NCBI GenBank assembly: GCA_021811745.1
Contig: JAJZNH010000629.1
Span: 1 to 7,073 of the forward strand
DNA: 7,073 nt
Reading direction: 5' to 3'
From: Acidobacteriota bacterium
Lineage (GTDB): Bacteria > Acidobacteriota > Terriglobia > Terriglobales > Acidobacteriaceae
This document shows, in pieces, positions 2 to 7,043 of this stretch. Numbering within the stretch: position 1 is the stretch's first letter; each line of letters opens with the position of its first letter. The translations under genes were made by a program, and so were the position numbers. Under the pieces are notes generated by a model. It was given only the letters and a program-made list of their open reading frames with translations, did not search any database and was not told the origin of the DNA.

Positions 2-1093
2 GCGCACGCGCCCAGCGCACCGCCCCCGGTGCCGGCCCGCGTTCCCGAGCAGGCCCGCTTCGACTGGTCCACCGCGGCGCAACTGAATCCGCGTTACACC
101 TTCGACGCGTTTGTCAGCGGCAGCGGCAATCAGTTTGCCCGCGCCGCCGCCCTGGCTGTGGCCGAGCGCCCTTCGCGTGCCTACAATCCGCTCTTCCTTT
201 ACAGCGGCGTGGGCATGGGCAAAACCCACCTCATGCACGCCATCGGTCACGAGGTCAAGCGCCGCCAGCCCATGGCCAGCATCTGCTACGTCTCGGCGGA
301 AAAATTCACCAATGAGATGATCAACTCCATCCGCAACGATCGCATGACCAGCTTTCGCGACCGTTTTCGCACCGTGGATGTGCTCTTGATCGACGACATT
401 CAATTCATCTCCCAGAAGGAGCGCACCCAGGAGGAGTTCTTTCACACCTTCAACGCGCTGCACGAGAGCATGAAGCAGGTGGTGATCGCCTCCGACCGTC
501 CTCCCAAGGAGCTGACGGAGATTGAGGAGCGGCTGCGCTCGCGCTTCGAGTGGGGTCTGATCGCCGACATCCAGCCGCCCGATCTGGAAACCAAGGTCGC
601 CATCCTGCTCAAGAAGGCTGAGAGCGAGCAGGTGCAGTTGCCCACCGACGTGGCGCTCTTTGTGGCCTCCAATGTGCGCACCAACGTGCGCGAGCTCGAG
701 GGCGCGCTGGTCCGGCTCATCGCCTGGTGCCAGAGCTACAAGATGGAGATCACCCTGGCAGCTACCCAGCAATGTCTCAAGCAGTTCATCGACATGCAGG
801 TGCGCAAGGTCACCATCGAGGCCATCCAGCGCGCCGTGGCCGAACAGTTTGGCATGAGGGTCCAGGACCTGAAGCAGAAGAACAACTCGCGCAACGTCGT
901 CGTTCCGCGCCAGATCGCCATGTACCTGGCCAAACAGATGACCGAGGCCAGCCTGCCCGAGATCGGCCGTCAGTTCGGCAACAAGCACCACACCACGGTC
1001 ATGCACTCCATCGCTAAAATCGACGAGCAACGGCGCACGGACAAAGACCTGCACCGCACGTTAAATAAGCTCCAGGATGTGCTGAACGGATAG
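2..1093 (+). CDS. dnaA: Chromosomal replication initiator DnaA (5' end cut off by the window)
   Basis: DnaA is the AAA+ ATPase that binds DnaA boxes at oriC, melts the origin and loads the helicase. The reading frame is open from base 2 and begins in a Pro/Ala-rich stretch (A-H-A-P-S-A-P-P-P) typical of the flexible domain II linker, so domain I and the true start lie upstream; the GTG at 29 is not the real start. The AAA+ domain follows: Walker A GVGMGKT at 206-226, Walker B LLIDD at 383-397, the SRFEWGL segment around 538-558 that should carry the arginine finger, and the sensor-2 helix [11 protein letters not shown] around 683-715. Domain IV, the DNA-binding helix-turn-helix, spans about 866-1021 and carries PRQIAMYLA and [19 protein letters not shown]. 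The DNA-contacting loop reads KHHTTV where E. coli has RDHTTV. The gene ends in TAG, and no dnaN follows. The next gene is convergent. Identification is essentially certain; only the N-terminus is missing. Confidence 0.97.
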
Positions 1094-1827: not shown

Positions 1828-3252
1828 TTACGCGGAGATCTTCGCATTGCCCGGGTCAGCGGCAGGCCTGGCGGCAGGCGCGTCTTCAATGGCCGGGAAA
1901 TTCATGCGGATGATGGCGCCACCACCTTCGCGGTTAAGGGCGGCAACTTCGCCGTTGTGCAGCCTCACCGCGCGTTCCGCGATAGCCAGTCCGACGCCGA
2001 AGCCGCCGGTATTCGGGCTGCGGGCGTAGTCGACCCGGTGGAAGGGCCTGAAGATCGCGTCCAACTGATTTTCAGGGATGCCGGGGCCGCGATCGCTGAT
2101 GTCAATCTGAGCCTGGCGCTCACCATCCCTGGTGACCGCCGCAAGCTCAATCTCGACTACAGAGCCGCTCTCTGTGTAGCGGATGGCGTTGCGCACAACG
2201 TTCTCAATGGCGGGGTAAAGCAAGCCCTCGTTGCCCGCGATGACGCATTCATCGGCTGCGTGAAAGAGAACTGAACATTGGCGCTGGCGGGCTTCATATT
2301 CGGCGTCGGGAATGAGCCGCTCGATGAGGCGGTTGAGGGAGACGGGCTCGAAGTTTTCCAGCTTTTCAAGCGCTTCCATCGATGAGAGGGTGAGCAGTTG
2401 ACCGATGAGCAGGTTGAGTCTTTCGGTCTCGCGCTCGATGCGCTCGAGGTGCGTTGTCATGGCTGGCTCCGCATCCTCGCGGGCCAGCTCCAGGGCAACG
2501 CTGAGGCGCGACAGCGGCGAGCGCAGCTCGTGCGAGACGTCGCGCAGCAGAAGCTTCTGCGCGGCGACGAGTGATTCCAGTCGCTCGGCCATGTGATTGA
2601 AGTCGTGCATGAGAGCGGAGATCTCGTCTTCAGCGAAGATGCGCGATGGCTTGGGGGGCAACGCCACGCGAGCGTTCAGCTTTCCCGCCGCAAGTTCGCG
2701 GGCGGCCTTCCGGAGCCGCGCTACCGGGCGGATCAGCAGCAGGACCAGCACGAAGGTCATGAGGCCTCCGACGACAATCGCCACCGGAAGCTGCGGGAAC
2801 GAGAAGCGCCGCAGATCCTGAATCAGGCTCCTCTTTCTTGGCAAATGAGGACGGCTCAGGAGAAAGACGTATCGCCGGCCGGCGGAGGAGGTGACCGGAA
2901 CATTCCATATATATTGTTTGCCGGTCTGTTTTCCGAAGATGCGCGCGGGCATTGCCGCGTAATTAGCGAGGCTGGGCGTGCCGGGCAGCTCACAGAGATA
3001 TTGGCCTGATGTATCGGCAAGGCCGACAGTTTGGGAGATGCCGGCGCCGTAAGTCAGCAAGGCGCCACAGCCTCCACTTTCGTAGGCGGCGACAGCGGTG
3101 TTGCCTTCATTTTGCAAAGTACTGAAGAGCGTTTCGAAGGGCACTTCGGGGCCTTCAAAATGGCGGCGCACGATCAGGGCCATGGAGATCACAAAGATGA
3201 GGCTCTGCGCGATCCAGAAGATGACGAAGATTTTGAAGAAGAGCCCACGCAT
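1828..3252 (-). CDS. cpxA: CpxA-like membrane sensor histidine kinase
   Basis: A 474-residue inner-membrane sensor kinase that should autophosphorylate and pass phosphate to the adjacent regulator. In order: transmembrane helix 1 (about 5-27), a periplasmic domain (about 28-154), transmembrane helix 2 (about 155-174), a HAMP linker starting at RPVARLRKAARELAAG (175-190), the dimerisation/phosphoacceptor helix VSHELRSPLSRLSVAL with His241, the N-box ENVVRNAIRYT with Asn355, the G1 box DRGPGIP (387-393), the F-box IFRPFHRVD (400-408) and the G2 box GGFGVGLAI (416-424). The F-to-G2 stretch and HELRSPLSRL closely resemble enterobacterial CpxA. The periplasmic domain has two cysteines, Cys62 and Cys87, that could form a disulfide. 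A roughly 20-residue Ala/Pro-rich tail (from about 455) extends past the ATPase domain. The ATG at 3252 lies 3 bases after the stop of the upstream regulator gene and has its own ribosome binding site. All catalytic motifs are intact. The signal sensed cannot be read from sequence. Confidence 0.93.
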   Translation of the reverse strand: MRGLFFKIFVIFWIAQSLIFVISMALIVRRHFEGPEVPFETLFSTLQNEGNTAVAAYESGGCGALLTYGAGISQTVGLADTSGQYLCELPGTPSLANYAAMPARIFGKQTGKQYIWNVPVTSSAGRRYVFLLSRPHLPRKRSLIQDLRRFSFPQLPVAIVVGGLMTFVLVLLLIRPVARLRKAARELAAGKLNARVALPPKPSRIFAEDEISALMHDFNHMAERLESLVAAQKLLLRDVSHELRSPLSRLSVALELAREDAEPAMTTHLERIERETERLNLLIGQLLTLSSMEALEKLENFEPVSLNRLIERLIPDAEYEARQRQCSVLFHAADECVIAGNEGLLYPAIENVVRNAIRYTESGSVVEIELAAVTRDGERQAQIDISDRGPGIPENQLDAIFRPFHRVDYARSPNTGGFGVGLAIAERAVRLHNGEVAALNREGGGAIIRMNFPAIEDAPAARPAADPGNAKISA

Positions 3253-3255
3253 GGT

Positions 3256-3960
3256 TCAGTCCTTTGCTGCCGGCGCATGAAGGTTGACGGCAAGCTGATA
3301 GCCCATTCCGCGAATGGTCTTTACCTGTTCCTCGGGCGCGCCGGCGTCAGCTAGTTTGCGCCTGAGGCGGCTGACGTGCATATCCAGGCTGCGATCAAAG
3401 GGGTGGAACTTGCGGCCGAGCACGCTCTCGGAGATCTCCTCACGCGCCACCACTTTGCCGGGCGAGCGCATGAGCGCTTCCAGCAGGGCGAACTCGACGT
3501 CGGTAAGATCGATCTTTGTGCCGTTGTGCAGAACCGTGCGCGCGGCGCGATTCAGTTCCAGCCCTTCGGCACGCAGCAGCGCCTGATCCGGCTTTGCGCC
3601 GGCGCTGCGGCGCAAGATGGCGCGCACGCGGGCCAGCAGCTCGCGCGGATTGAAAGGCTTTGAGAGGTAATCATCGGCGCCGATTTCGAGGCCGACGATG
3701 CGGTCGACGTCTTCTCCACGCGCCGTTAACAGCAATACGCTGACAGGCGAGACGGCGCGAATTCTTCGCAGCACTTCAAAGCCATCCAGGCCGGGAAGCA
3801 TGACGTCGAGCAGCACGAGCGCGTATGGCTTTTCGAGTGCCGCTTTCAGCCCCGTGTCGCCGCGATGCACGGCGGTGACGCGGAAGCCGAATCGCCCCAG
3901 ATACTCCTTCAGCATGGAGCAAAGTTCAACGTCATCGTCAATGAGAAGCAGTTCGTCCAC
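3256..3960 (-). CDS. cpxR: CpxR-like OmpR-family response regulator
   Basis: A 234-residue DNA-binding response regulator, the expected partner of the adjacent kinase. The receiver domain (about 1-115) has the acidic pocket DDD (8-10), phosphoacceptor Asp52 in LLLDVMLPG-type context, Thr79 and Lys101 in DDYLSKPF. The C-terminal winged helix (about 130-228) contains LTDVEFALLEALMRSPGKVV, VLGRKFHPFDRSLDMHVSRLRRKL and the C-terminal hairpin KTIRGMGYQL. The stretch VLGRKFHPFDRSLDMH is very close to the corresponding part of E. coli CpxR, and the length (CpxR is 232 residues) also fits. I chose the GTG at 3960 because it starts V-D-E-L-L-L-I-D-D-D, the usual OmpR-family N-terminus, and has an AAGG Shine-Dalgarno 7 bases upstream. 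A further in-frame GTG at 4008 would add 16 residues without homology. It is first in the operon and divergent from the receptor gene. Autoregulation is likely, given the half-sites upstream. Confidence 0.94.
   Translation of the reverse strand: MDELLLIDDDVELCSMLKEYLGRFGFRVTAVHRGDTGLKAALEKPYALVLLDVMLPGLDGFEVLRRIRAVSPVSVLLLTARGEDVDRIVGLEIGADDYLSKPFNPRELLARVRAILRRSAGAKPDQALLRAEGLELNRAARTVLHNGTKIDLTDVEFALLEALMRSPGKVVAREEISESVLGRKFHPFDRSLDMHVSRLRRKLADAGAPEEQVKTIRGMGYQLAVNLHAPAAKD
3260..3265 (-). promoter_or_regulatory. Ribosome binding site of the sensor-kinase gene
   Basis: AAAGGA on the - strand lies 7 bases before the ATG at 3252 and inside the last codons of the regulator gene. It fixes the kinase start and shows that the two genes, only 3 bases apart, form one transcript with separate initiation sites. 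Confidence 0.75.
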
Positions 3961-3967
3961 CTGATTG

Positions 3968-4059: not shown

Positions 4060-4088
4060 GATATGGCAAAAATGTAACAAATCGTCAC
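4060..4088 (-). promoter_or_regulatory. Candidate promoter of the cpxRA-like operon
   Basis: On the - strand GTGACG (4088-4083; 4 of 6 matches to TTGACA) is followed after exactly 17 bases by CATATC (4065-4060; 3 of 6 matches to TATAAT). It would give a leader of roughly 90 bases before the GTG at 3960. The -35-like hexamer overlaps one of the CpxR-box-like half-sites, as an autoregulated promoter might. The match is weak, and the start point is a guess. Confidence 0.28.
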
Positions 4089-4130
4089 GGGCGCGGAGAC
4101 AAATCGTTACATGGTTTTACCCATTGTGAC
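4074..4130. promoter_or_regulatory. Cluster of CpxR-box-like half-sites in the divergent promoter region
   Basis: Known CpxR binds direct repeats of GTAAA separated by about 5 bases. Here, on the + strand, GTAAC (4074-4078) and GTCAC (4084-4088) are separated by 5 bases. On the - strand, GTCAC (4130-4126), GTAAA (4120-4116) and GTAAC (4110-4106) are each separated by 5 bases. All five half-sites keep a 10-bp period within each set, and the two sets face each other across 17 bases. A 12-base near-repeat, ACAAATCGTCAC (4077-4088) and ACAAATCGTTAC (4099-4110), differs at one base and is offset by 22 bases, close to two helical turns. The array lies between the regulator gene and the divergent receptor gene. 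Binding by this window's CpxR-like protein is inferred from the family's known site; the pattern itself is directly visible. Confidence 0.6.
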
Positions 4131-4180
4131 TGTGCGGAGTTCTCCGTCAGCGTCTCCTAAGTTAGAGCAATCCGCACAGT
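4129..4180 (+). repeat. Perfect 10-bp inverted repeat upstream of the receptor gene
   Basis: ACTGTGCGGA at 4129-4138 is the exact reverse complement of TCCGCACAGT at 4171-4180, with 32 bases between the arms. The right arm ends 3 bases before the GAGGGA ribosome binding site. The left arm overlaps the last CpxR-box-like half-site by 2 bases. If the transcript starts upstream of 4129, it could fold into a leader stem beside the ribosome binding site; otherwise the arms may be paired protein-binding sites. The repeat is certain, its function unknown. Confidence 0.55.
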
Positions 4181-4196: not shown

Positions 4197-7043
4197 ATGA
4201 CGAAGCGAACGATTCTCAGCACAATTTGGGGTGTATTTCTTCTCTGCGCCGCACTGCCGGCGGGAGCGCAGACGGCGGCAGGCAGAATCCAGGGGACCGT
4301 AACGGATCCAACGGGGGCAGTGATTCCATCGTCCACCGTTACCGTAACGAATTCGACCGGCGTCTCGCAGTCCACGACCAGCAGCGGCACCGGCGCTTAC
4401 GAGTTCCAGGGGCTGGCGCCGGGCCGCTATTCGGTCTCGGCCGCGGCCGAAGGGTTTGCTTCCTACACGGTGGAGAATCTTCTCATCGTTGGCGATAAGA
4501 CGATCATTCAAAACATCGAGATGCAACTGCCGGTGGAACAGCAGCAGGTGACGGTGAGCGATCAGGGCTTGAGCGTGGATACCAGCCCCGAGAACAACGC
4601 CGGGGCCATCGTCATCAAGGGCAAGGATCTGGATGCGCTCTCCGACGATCCAGACGAACTGCAGAGCGAGCTGACCGCGCTGGCCGGTCCGGCCGCGGGA
4701 CCAAACGGCGGGCAGATATATATTGACGGGTTTACCGGCGGGCAGCTCCCTCCCAAGTCTTCCATCCGCGAGATCCGCATCAATCAAAATCCCTTCTCCG
4801 CGCAATACGACAAGCTGGGCTACGGCCGGATTGAGATTCTCACCAAGCCGGGCACAAACACGCTGCACGGCATGATGATGATGAACGGCAATGATTCCAC
4901 GTTTAACTCGATTAACCCGTTCGTGAAAGAAGAGCCGCCCTACTACACGACCTTCTTTATGGGCAACGCGAGCGGCGCGCTGGGCAAGAAGGCGTCGTGG
5001 TTTGGCAGCGTCTTCCGCCGCGACAACCAGTCGAACTCGATTGTGAACGCGGAACGGCTCGATGCAAACGGCAATCCCTATAACTACTCCACTGCCGTCG
5101 CCAACCCGCAGACGCGGCTGGATGTAAGCCCGCGTTTCGACCTTCAACTGGGTGGCGGCAACACGCTTACCATCCGCTATATGTTTGACCAGCAGACGGC
5201 GACCAATAGTGGCGTTTCACAATTTTCCCTGGAGAGCCAGGCCTACAACGTTTCGAACCACGAGAACACATTGCAATTGAGCGATACGCAGGTTCTGAGC
5301 GCCAGCGTGGTGAATGAAACCCGCTTCCAGTACATGGGCGATCGCACCAGCCAGGCGGCGCAAAACAGCGGCCCTACGATCATGGTGCAGGGCGCCTTCA
5401 CGGGCGGCGCCAACAGCATGGGGGTGCTCCGCGACAACCAGGACCACTTCGAATTGCAGAACAACACGATCATGAGCAAGGGAGCGCACTCGATCAACTT
5501 TGGACTGCGGCTGCGCTATGAGCGCGACTCGAACTACTCCACCTCCGGGTTCAACGGCACGTATATCTATCCCTCGCTCAATGCTTACAAGGCGCAAACG
5601 CCGACCGAGTACGATGTGACCGCCGGAAACTCCCTGATCAAAGTGAATTACTTCGATGCCGGCGTTTATTTTCAGGATGACTACAAGGTGCGTCCCAACC
5701 TGACCATCAGTTACGGCCTGCGCTACGAGACGCAGAACGTCATTGGAGACCATAGTGACTGGGCTCCGCGATTCGCGTTTGCCTGGGCGCCCGGCGCGCA
5801 TGGAAGCACGCCGGCCAGGACGGTCTTCCGCGGCGGCTACGGATGGTTTTACGACCGCTTCGGTGAAGGCAGCATCATGCAGGCAATGCGGAACAACGGC
5901 GTGAATCAGCAGCAGTACATCATCAAGAATCCAGGCTTCTACCAGAATGCGCCACCGCCGTCGCAACTGGCATCCAGTAATGTTGCGGCGCCGACGATCT
6001 ACCAGATTGCGCCGAACATCAGAGCTTCAGTCAATATGCAGGCGGCGGGCGGAATCGAACACCTGTTCGGCAAAGTGGCCACGGTGTCGCTCACCTACAT
6101 CAACTCGCGCGGCGTTCACGAGTTTTACACCGATAACATCAATGCATTTTTACCGGGAACATATGATGCGGCCACAGGCACGGGCTCGCGGCCGAACAAC
6201 AAAAGCGGGAACATCTACCAGTTCCAGTCCGGCGGCGTTTACAACCAGAATCAACTGATGCTCAACTACAACGTGCGCACCAGCCGGCTTTCGCTCTTTG
6301 GCTTCTACATGTTGAACTTTGCCAATGCGGATACGTCGGGTGTGGGATACTTCCCGTCGAACCAGTTCGACCCGCGCGCAGATTACGGCCGCGCTAACTT
6401 CGACGTGCGCAATCGCTTCCTGTTGGGCGGCAACTTCCAGGCTCCGTTTGGGGTGTCGTTCAGTCCGATGCTGGTGGCCAACTCCGGGCAGCCCTACAAC
6501 ATCACCATTGGGCAGGACCTGAATGGCGACAACCAGTACAATGACCGGCCGACCTACGCCACGGCCGCCAGCACGGACGTTGTCCAGACCCCATACGGCA
6601 ACCTCGACATGAATCCGGCATGGAACCAGGCGCGGATTCCGTATAACCTCGGGACCGGACCGGGGCAGTTCAGCATGAACCTGAGAGTCAGCAAGGCGTT
6701 TGGCATCGGGCCGAAAGTGGCGACGGGATTTGCTCCCTCTGCCGGCGGACCCGGAGGGCCCGGCGGTCACGGTGGCCACGGCGGCAGGTTTGGCGGCGGA
6801 CTCGGGCCGGGAGGCTTGAGCGGACCGGGCGGACCGCAGCGGATGGCGCAGACGAGCACCCGGCGTTACTCGCTCAACTTCACGGCGATGGCAAGGAACG
6901 TCTTCAATAACGTGAATCTGGCGGCGCCGGTGGGCGTTATGACGTCGCAACTTTTCGGTAAGTCGAATGCTCTGGCTGGAGGGTTTTTCTCTTCCCCGGC
7001 TTCCAATCGCAGCATCGACTTGCAGATGTCGTTCAGCTTCTAG
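4197..7043 (+). CDS. TonB-dependent-receptor-like (Oar-type) outer-membrane protein
   Basis: A 948-residue outer-membrane beta-barrel protein, probably importing or binding an unidentified large substrate with TonB energy. Residues 1-24 form a Sec signal peptide (basic MTKR, hydrophobic WGVFLLCAAL, cleavage after A-G-A before Gln25). Residues about 29-111 are a carboxypeptidase-regulatory-like beta-sandwich (GRIQGTVTDPTGAVIPS...GAYEFQGLAPGRYSVSAAAEGF). Residues about 117-223 are the plug, including QIYIDGFTGGQLPPKSSIRE and the plug-end motif YGRIEILTKPGTNTLHG. The rest is barrel, with strand signatures such as NLTISYGLRYE and RGGYGWFYDRF, and a final aromatic strand SIDLQMSFSF ending in Phe as outer-membrane barrels do. 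A Gly/His-rich segment lies near residues 849-881. No clear TonB box is seen, as is common for this subtype. Acidobacteriota carry many such receptors, often somewhat longer. The gene is divergent from the CpxRA-like operon and shares its upstream region, so control by that system is likely. The substrate is unknown. Confidence 0.9.
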   Translation: MTKRTILSTIWGVFLLCAALPAGAQTAAGRIQGTVTDPTGAVIPSSTVTVTNSTGVSQSTTSSGTGAYEFQGLAPGRYSVSAAAEGFASYTVENLLIVGDKTIIQNIEMQLPVEQQQVTVSDQGLSVDTSPENNAGAIVIKGKDLDALSDDPDELQSELTALAGPAAGPNGGQIYIDGFTGGQLPPKSSIREIRINQNPFSAQYDKLGYGRIEILTKPGTNTLHGMMMMNGNDSTFNSINPFVKEEPPYYTTFFMGNASGALGKKASWFGSVFRRDNQSNSIVNAERLDANGNPYNYSTAVANPQTRLDVSPRFDLQLGGGNTLTIRYMFDQQTATNSGVSQFSLESQAYNVSNHENTLQLSDTQVLSASVVNETRFQYMGDRTSQAAQNSGPTIMVQGAFTGGANSMGVLRDNQDHFELQNNTIMSKGAHSINFGLRLRYERDSNYSTSGFNGTYIYPSLNAYKAQTPTEYDVTAGNSLIKVNYFDAGVYFQDDYKVRPNLTISYGLRYETQNVIGDHSDWAPRFAFAWAPGAHGSTPARTVFRGGYGWFYDRFGEGSIMQAMRNNGVNQQQYIIKNPGFYQNAPPPSQLASSNVAAPTIYQIAPNIRASVNMQAAGGIEHLFGKVATVSLTYINSRGVHEFYTDNINAFLPGTYDAATGTGSRPNNKSGNIYQFQSGGVYNQNQLMLNYNVRTSRLSLFGFYMLNFANADTSGVGYFPSNQFDPRADYGRANFDVRNRFLLGGNFQAPFGVSFSPMLVANSGQPYNITIGQDLNGDNQYNDRPTYATAASTDVVQTPYGNLDMNPAWNQARIPYNLGTGPGQFSMNLRVSKAFGIGPKVATGFAPSAGGPGGPGGHGGHGGRFGGGLGPGGLSGPGGPQRMAQTSTRRYSLNFTAMARNVFNNVNLAAPVGVMTSQLFGKSNALAGGFFSSPASNRSIDLQMSFSF
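6741..6840 (+). repeat. Gly/Pro/His-rich low-complexity segment in the receptor
   Basis: About 33 codons encode mostly glycine with proline and two histidines (for example GGPGGPGGHGGHGG), built from degenerate GGN-CCN-GGN triplet repeats. It falls between two predicted late barrel strands (LRVSKAFGIG before, RRYSLNFTAMARNVFNN after), so it should form a flexible loop or turn. The G-G-H-G-G-H spacing could bind metal ions, but this is speculative. The repetitive GC-rich DNA could vary in length between strains. Confidence 0.65.

What the first reader, a model, noticed from the sequence alone, without database searches (positions are those of the whole stretch)
4074..4130. Five CpxR-box-like half-sites in strict 10-bp register between a CpxRA-like operon and a receptor gene
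Seen: GTAAC/GTCAC on one strand and GTCAC/GTAAA/GTAAC on the other, always with 5-base gaps, forming two facing arrays. Known: E. coli CpxR binds tandem GTAAA repeats with about 5-base spacing, and this window's regulator has a CpxR-like winged helix (FHPFDRSLDMH region). Inferred: the regulator binds here, repressing or activating both divergent promoters. The pattern suggests the CpxR site code is kept in a phylum far from Proteobacteria, with an inverted double array as a possible variant.
Basis: partly seen in the sequence, partly recalled or inferred. Interest (0 to 1): 0.72.

Follow-up and report, generated by a model that had tools for sequence, protein, structure and literature searches.

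The report
Conserved CpxR-type operator in Acidobacteriota
In a soil bacterium of the phylum Acidobacteriota, the DNA between a stress-type regulator and an outer-membrane protein gene carries a strictly spaced row of binding-site copies, of the kind known from the E. coli Cpx envelope-stress system, that is kept in relatives while the neighbouring target gene and one letter of the site differ between lineages.

Summary
The array is real: GTAAC-N5-GTCAC on + (4074-4088) faces GTTAC-N5-TTTAC-N5-GTGAC read on - (4106-4130), in exact 10-bp register (0 of 20,000 shuffles). A sixth, degenerate slot (GAGAC, 4096-4100) lies in register.

Of 29 regulators in the window's clade (window included), 27 have both facing arrays, always 21-22 or 31-33 bp apart; half-sites carry 1.5-1.7 bits per base, flanks 0.1-0.7. 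The regulator falls in a CpxR clade without OmpR, CreB, BaeR or ArcA, which however are long branches. E. coli cpxP has a matching three-unit array (TTAC, TTAC, TGAC) in the same orientation.

Binding and direction of regulation are inferred, not shown. It works like a Cpx operator; I do not file it as CpxRA proper.

The parts
4074..4078 (+). half-site GTAAC, left array unit 1
   Evidence: sequence; a left pair is found in 17 of 18 TBDR-clade and 11 of 11 ECF-clade loci
4084..4088 (+). half-site GTCAC, left array unit 2
4096..4100 (-). degenerate slot GAGAC in right-array register; GTGAC or GTTAC in many relatives
   Evidence: for the window; for relatives
4106..4110 (-). half-site GTAAC (GTTAC on +), right array
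4116..4120 (-). half-site GTAAA (TTTAC on +), right array
4126..4130 (-). half-site GTCAC (GTGAC on +), right array, last unit before the divergent gene
4126..4161 (+). putative promoter of the divergent gene: GTGACTGTGC, 18 bases, CTCCTAAG
   Evidence: block found in 15 of 16 TBDR-clade loci examined; exactly 18 bases on, YTYCT stands in 13 of these 15 and a one-letter deviation in the other two; that it is a promoter is inference
3256..3960 (-). CpxR-type response regulator (GTG start at 3958-3960 likely, my reading)
   Evidence: Pfam Response_reg + Trans_reg_C; NCBIfam CpxR best, below cut-off; tree
3367..3369 (-). codon of the recognition-helix Arg (residue 199 counted from the codon at 3963) that covaries with half-site base 5
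1828..3252 (-). CpxA-type sensor histidine kinase
   Evidence: Pfam HAMP, HisKA, HATPase_c; best NCBIfam models CpxA 305 and 220 bits, next 159, all below cut-off
4197..7043 (+). divergent outer-membrane beta-barrel protein with CarboxypepD_reg domain (TonB-dependent-receptor type)
   Evidence: Pfam OMP_b-brl_4 and CarboxypepD_reg; TonB_dep_Rec_b-barrel below its cut-off; named relatives are called carboxypeptidase regulatory-like or TonB-dependent receptor, mostly Terracidiphilus

Best explanation
The region is the operator of the adjacent CpxR-type two-component system. Phosphorylated regulator dimers load head-to-tail on 10-bp tandem half-sites. The right array (four slots here, one decayed) runs up to the putative -35 region of the outer-membrane protein gene and most likely activates it, as the E. 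coli array does at cpxP. The left pair faces the regulator's own start and most likely serves autoregulation. The regulator's clade reads GTNAC rather than GTAAA because of an Arg in the recognition helix. Shown: the sites, their conservation and phasing, their tie to this regulator, and the covariation. Inferred: binding, activation, autoregulation, and the causal role of the Arg.
For: Array beyond chance. Conservation: both arrays in 16 of 18 TBDR-clade, 11 of 11 ECF-clade and 12 of 18 Lys-clade loci; half-sites 1.5-1.7 bits against 0.1-0.7 in the flanks. Phasing: all 27 pairs of the window's clade start 21-22 or 31-33 bp apart. Tie to the regulator and not to the target: the array stays when the divergent gene is the barrel protein (15 of 18, window and one partial hit counted), an ECF sigma factor (11 of 11) or an LTXXQ protein (13 of 18). 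In 33 genomes the three-unit pattern is at this locus in 31; 46 of 75 matches are there, against 14 matches of the reversed control pattern anywhere. Regulator in the CpxR clade; E. coli CpxR finds this orthologue first in 3 of 4 genomes. E. coli cpxR-cpxP: TTTAC-N5-TTTAC-N5-CTGAC, same orientation. Helix residue and base 5 covary; the same helix position contacts bases in RstA (Arg207) and PmrA (Asn196) (passages; alignment mine). A CTTCTG-like block stands 18 bases after the last-half-site block in nearly all TBDR-clade loci.
Against: No binding or expression data. Regulator and kinase score below the CpxR/CpxA equivalog cut-offs (211 of 341, 305 of 800). Of five E. coli regulators compared, OmpR is nearly as similar as CpxR (175 against 180 bits). 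In the tree OmpR, CreB, BaeR and ArcA are long branches, whose exclusion the tool itself calls unsure. Among 22 loci with Asn at the helix column, only 2 have four or more units in register, 8 have two or three, and 12 have none, among them three of four Legionella-type loci and one Shewanella, so the array is not found at every CpxR-like locus. The regulator clade is one lineage, so the residue-base covariation inside the CpxR clade amounts to about one change. L041 and L044 have Arg with GTAAA repeats. In G376 E. coli CpxR finds the paralogue first. Of 8 paralogue loci examined only 4 have a TTTAC array; one Asn paralogue (L213) has none. G420 (L120) kept only the left pair.
Confidence: 0.8

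Rival explanations
1. Another OmpR-family regulator of the cell, not the adjacent one, binds the array.
For: Regulators of this family read similar tandem sites; the genomes hold several CpxR-like paralogues and E. coli ompF upstream DNA holds TTTAC-N5-GTTAC.
Against: The array follows this regulator through three kinds of divergent gene and its last base follows this regulator's helix residue, while Asn paralogues in four of the same genomes have their own TTTAC arrays. In 33 whole genomes 46 of 75 three-unit matches lie at this locus.
Confidence: 0.08
2. The regulator represses through the facing arrays (roadblock at the -35 of the divergent gene, and negative autoregulation).
For: The last unit overlaps the putative -35 block; the two arrays are phased so that both can be filled at once.
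Against: The matching array in E. coli belongs to cpxP; a cpxP reporter rises about 15-fold on Cpx-activating stress in P. aeruginosa and is a usual readout elsewhere (passages of PMC12802237); activation in E. coli, and last units overlapping the -35 in activators of this family, are recalled.
Confidence: 0.12
3. The repeats are promoter elements or chance AT-rich words, not a regulator site.
For: TTTAC/TTGAC resemble -35 hexamers.
Against: 0 of 20,000 shuffles; five to six units in register; conservation far above flanks.
Confidence: 0.02

Closest known systems
E. coli cpxR-cpxP intergenic operator (CpxR box GTAAA-N5-GTAAA)
   Same: 10-bp tandem units; TTTAC-N5-TTTAC-N5-CTGAC in the same orientation to the divergent gene, with the TGAC-type unit last as in the window; regulator and kinase divergent from an envelope-protein gene
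   Different: No forward pair found beside E. coli cpxR; last base A instead of mostly C; Asn instead of Arg in the helix; target CpxP instead of an outer-membrane barrel protein
Pseudomonas aeruginosa Cpx regulon (PMC12802237, passages read)
   Same: GTAAA/GTCAA tandem sites; predicted or DAP-Seq sites before outer-membrane receptor genes (pirA, fpvB, PA3268)
   Different: Receptors are scattered regulon members, not the divergent partner of cpxR; no facing phased double array in the passages read
OmpR sites (ompF) and RstA box
   Same: Arg at the same helix position; GTTAC in the RstA consensus TACATNTNGTTACA (PMC4117788 passages) and in TTTAC-N5-GTTAC upstream of ompF (that this is the F1 OmpR site is recalled)
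   Different: Regulator falls outside the OmpR branch (long-branch caveat); kinase is CpxA-type, not EnvZ or RstB

Membership tests
CpxRA two-component system | Regulator in the CpxR branch of the OmpR family | tested here: met
   CpxR clade of 79 rows, support 100/97, OmpR, CreB, BaeR, ArcA outside but on long branches; the window's clade is sister to the rest with weak support 87/74 and a midpoint root
CpxRA two-component system | Scores above the curated CpxR and CpxA equivalog cut-offs | tested here: not met
   211.4 of 341 and 304.8 of 800 bits; the CpxR-like proteins of Shewanella (L040) and Legionella (L013) also fall below (295, 242)
CpxRA two-component system | Tandem half-sites GT(A/C)AA at 10-bp period in the autoregulatory region | tested here: inconclusive
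   10-bp register and GT(A/C)A core met; the last base is mostly C, a deviation from the consensus
CpxRA two-component system | Divergent cpxP (LTXXQ protein) | tested here: not met
   Window has an outer-membrane protein; LTXXQ partner present in 13 of 18 Lys-clade loci
CpxRA two-component system | Regulator binds the site and responds to envelope stress | not testable with these tools
   needs footprinting and reporters
OmpR-EnvZ | Regulator in the OmpR branch, kinase EnvZ-like | tested here: not met
   tree; EnvZ model 137 bits against CpxA 305

The most novel reading that the evidence does not exclude
One base-contacting residue of the CpxR recognition helix (Arg against Asn/Lys) and the last base of its half-site (C against A) changed together, insulating two Cpx-type systems that coexist in one genome, and the insulated system kept its phased facing operator while its divergent target was exchanged among a CpxP-like protein, an ECF sigma factor and a TonB-type outer-membrane protein. 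The direction of the change is not settled, since outgroup regulators such as OmpR also have Arg.
Probability: 0.48. Interest if true: 0.68.

Novelty: new variant of a known kind. Interest (0 to 1): 0.52.

Why it matters
[quoted passage not shown] The residue-base pairing makes a concrete, cheap test of how paralogous OmpR-family regulators avoid cross-binding. It also proposes an envelope-stress-type input for the large CarboxypepD_reg outer-membrane proteins of Acidobacteriota, whose control is little known (my own judgement, not a searched claim).

Tried and rejected
Rejected: chance or promoter words only; membership in the OmpR-EnvZ system; a purely local oddity. Led nowhere: literature on Cpx sites in Acidobacteriota (one E. 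coli paper; two Acidobacteria papers, of which PMC7074687 was searched and holds no 'Cpx', PMC3174227 seen in the listing only; none; 162 papers, only 10 listed, none on the subject); literature on residue-base covariation in this family (three papers listed, none on it). E. coli whole-record protein searches failed (record not held), so I fetched four more E. coli K-12 stretches and compared five regulators only. I tried to place the RstA Arg207-G5 contact on the covarying base; from the numbering in the passages G5 lies directly 5' of TACA, one base from where I would need it, so the exact contact stays unproven. No structure was predicted.

Left out of counts: only the best 30 loci were fetched, so the relatives are the closest ones (138 of 399 genomes had a match). 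L118 (contig ends 95 bases after the regulator) is counted as lacking both arrays. Loci reached twice (L081-L088) were left out of the and counts. The conservation count used 15 of 18 TBDR-clade, 10 of 11 ECF-clade and 11 of 18 Lys-clade loci; left out were L097, L118, L120, L128 and the Lys-clade loci L002, L004, L108-L111, L114, some of which do hold an array. The tree left out 30 distant regulators to keep it small, among them L044, one of the two counter-examples. In one search, paralogues L212 (other helix), L213 (Asn), L214 and L217 had no TTTAC array.

Full report
What is there. The window holds, on the minus strand, a response regulator (3256-3960) and a sensor kinase (1828-3252), and divergently an outer-membrane barrel protein with an N-terminal CarboxypepD_reg domain (4197-7043). 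NCBIfam ranks CpxR first for the regulator (211 bits; CreB 206, OmpR 202) and two CpxA models first for the kinase (305 and 220; next 159), all below the curated cut-offs. Named close relatives of the barrel protein are from Terracidiphilus and other Acidobacteriota (best 120 of 7998 hits listed).

The array. GTAAC 4074, GTCAC 4084 on plus; GTTAC 4106, TTTAC 4116, GTGAC 4126, reading on minus as GTCAC, GTAAA, GTAAC. A degenerate sixth slot, GAGAC, lies at 4096. No other run of two or more units exists in the window; 0 of 20,000 dinucleotide shuffles reach it. The unit definition came from the finding, so I rest the case on relatives.

Conservation. Searching 399 genomes of one class and 250 of one family (best 30 loci fetched from each), gave regulators at 57-85% identity. 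In the clade of the window (29 regulators including it) both facing arrays are present in 27; the others are a contig end (L118) and a locus that kept only the left pair and has another neighbour (L120). The start-to-start distance of the arrays is 21-22 bp in 13 and 31-33 bp in 14 of the 27, so they always lie on about the same face of the helix; the 10-bp step equals one unit slot, which in the window is the decayed GAGAC. Mean information is 1.5-1.7 bits per half-site base. Outside the arrays it is 0.23-0.62 left of the left array and 0.11-0.69 beyond +10 on the right; spacers lie between 0.06 and 1.44, so some spacers (AAATC-like) are also conserved, and the five bases after the last unit reach 1.32 in the ECF clade.

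The target differs, the operator stays. In the window's subclade (18 loci) the divergent gene is the barrel protein in 15 by tblastn, counting the window itself and a short partial hit in L121. In a sister subclade it is an ECF sigma factor in 11 of 11 loci. In a further clade (Lys clade, 18 loci) it is an LTXXQ (CpxP/Spy family) protein in 13, where two of the five others are contig ends. The queries were two ECF proteins and three LTXXQ proteins confirmed by Pfam and one more LTXXQ-like protein (L104) that was not put to Pfam. The last layout is that of E. coli cpxP-cpxRA. In the Lys clade both arrays are found in 12 of 18 loci; there the left pair lies 32-54 bases from the regulator while the start-to-start distance to the right array varies from 21 to 170, which suggests two modules, one for each promoter. 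In E. coli K-12 the cpxR-cpxP region holds TTTAC-N5-TTTAC-N5-CTGAC in the same orientation, and no forward pair.

Not every CpxR-like locus shows it. Among 22 loci with Asn at the helix column, 2 have four or more units in register within the 330 bases searched, 8 have two or three, 12 none, including Legionella-type L011, L013, L014 and Shewanella L038. The facing form appears in L008 (Pyrinomonadaceae), L026 (Geobacteraceae) and L040 (Shewanella).

Family. In a tree of 101 regulators a clade of 79 (support 100/97) holds the window's clade, E. coli CpxR, Shewanella, Legionella and the acidobacterial Lys clade, and leaves out E. coli OmpR, CreB, BaeR and ArcA; these are long branches, and the tool warns that their place is unsure. 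The window's clade (100/99) is sister to the rest with weak support (87/74); the root is a midpoint. E. coli CpxR finds the window's orthologue first in G322, G402 and G131 and a paralogue first in G376. By plain BLAST against five E. coli regulators CpxR (180 bits) only just beats OmpR (175). The best solved DNA-binding domain is that of CpxR (4uht, 71 bits; next RstA, 56). Because two features often used to define CpxRA (equivalog score, divergent cpxP) were tested and not met, I say that it works like a Cpx operator and do not file it as CpxRA proper.

A residue-base pairing. The helix reads DRSLDMHVSRLRRKL in the window, with Arg at the marked place in all 29 of its clade; DRSIDMHVSKVRKKL or a close form in the Lys clade; DRAIDMHISNLRRKL in E. 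coli CpxR. Over loci with at least four units, the last half-site base is C in 100 of 149 units for Arg (27 loci), A in 56 of 62 for Lys (13 loci), and A in 10 of 12 for Asn/Ser (3 loci). Four genomes (G041, G225, G376, G386) hold, besides the Arg system with GTNAC arrays, an Asn paralogue with TTTAC arrays; the four other paralogue loci that I examined have none, one of them (L213) also Asn. Outside the CpxR clade, L046, L053 and L074 (Arg) have GTAAC runs, but L041 and L044 (Arg, other helix context) have GTAAA. In the RstA-DNA structure the matching residue, Arg207, contacts a G and R207A is called a loss-of-function mutant; in PmrA the matching Asn196 makes base-specific contact and N196A binds less well (passages of PMC4117788 and PMC4660055; the alignment of positions is mine). 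The exact base read by Arg here is not established. Since this is one clade against another, the pairing counts as about one event within CpxR; its direction is open because OmpR and other outgroups also have Arg.

Elsewhere in the genomes. The three-unit pattern gave 75 matches in 33 genomes, 46 of them at this locus (31 of 33 genomes, counting G517 whose contig is broken there), against 14 for the reversed control pattern. So of the 29 other matches perhaps half are chance. Those that look meaningful: L132 (G307) and L149 (G366), before short secreted CarboxypepD_reg-only proteins; L141 (G386), a full double array with 31-bp phase, while L132 has 22-bp phase; and L196, L185 and L216 (G062, G319, G252), 184-262 bases before an efflux-adaptor-like gene, judged from the translations alone. 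The regulon therefore looks small.

Mechanism. By analogy with cpxP, and because the last right unit meets a block GTGACCGCAC (15 of 16 loci) that is followed after exactly 18 bases by YTYCT in 13 of those 15, with one-letter deviations in the other two, I take the right array as an activator site and the left pair as autoregulatory. Neither step is shown.

Literature. Read in passages: PMC12802237 (CpxR consensus GTAAA-N5-GTAAA, GTCAA variants, Cpx systems named for alpha, beta and gamma Proteobacteria, sites before receptor genes), PMC4117788, PMC4660055, PMC4832192, PMC7074687. Other papers were seen only in listings. Searches listed nothing on Cpx operators in Acidobacteriota or on this residue-base pairing; one search showed 10 of 162 papers, and the library holds open-licence papers only, so absence from print is not established.

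Noticed in passing
L132 (G307) and L149 (G366): A double array (L132) and a four-unit array (L149) before short secreted proteins with a CarboxypepD_reg domain and no barrel; 39% and 35% identical to the start of the window's outer-membrane protein.
   Followed up: partly
window 4126-4161 and relatives: GTGACCGCAC, then 18 bases, then CTTCTG or like: looks like a promoter of unusual, perhaps ECF-sigma type.
   Followed up: partly
L196 (G062), L185 (G319), L216 (G252): TTTACAAATCTTTAC arrays 184-262 bases before efflux-adaptor-like genes (judged from translations) in three Lys-clade genomes, a likely shared second target.
   Followed up: partly
L164 (G517:C4): Three-unit array before a small secreted protein beside the outer-membrane protein orthologue; only a sub-threshold Metal_resist match.
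   Followed up: partly
L148 (G041), L200 (G225): Second CpxRA-like pair with a divergent LTXXQ-type protein (L148: 23.9 bits, cut-off 24.3) and three TTTAC units, the classic cpxP-cpxRA layout, in genomes that also hold the window-type system.
   Followed up: yes
window 2-1093 and 1159-1767: 3' part of a dnaA-like gene (judged from the translation) and a Jag/EloR-like R3H protein lie next to the cpxA-like gene; whether this neighbourhood is conserved was not tested.
   Followed up: no
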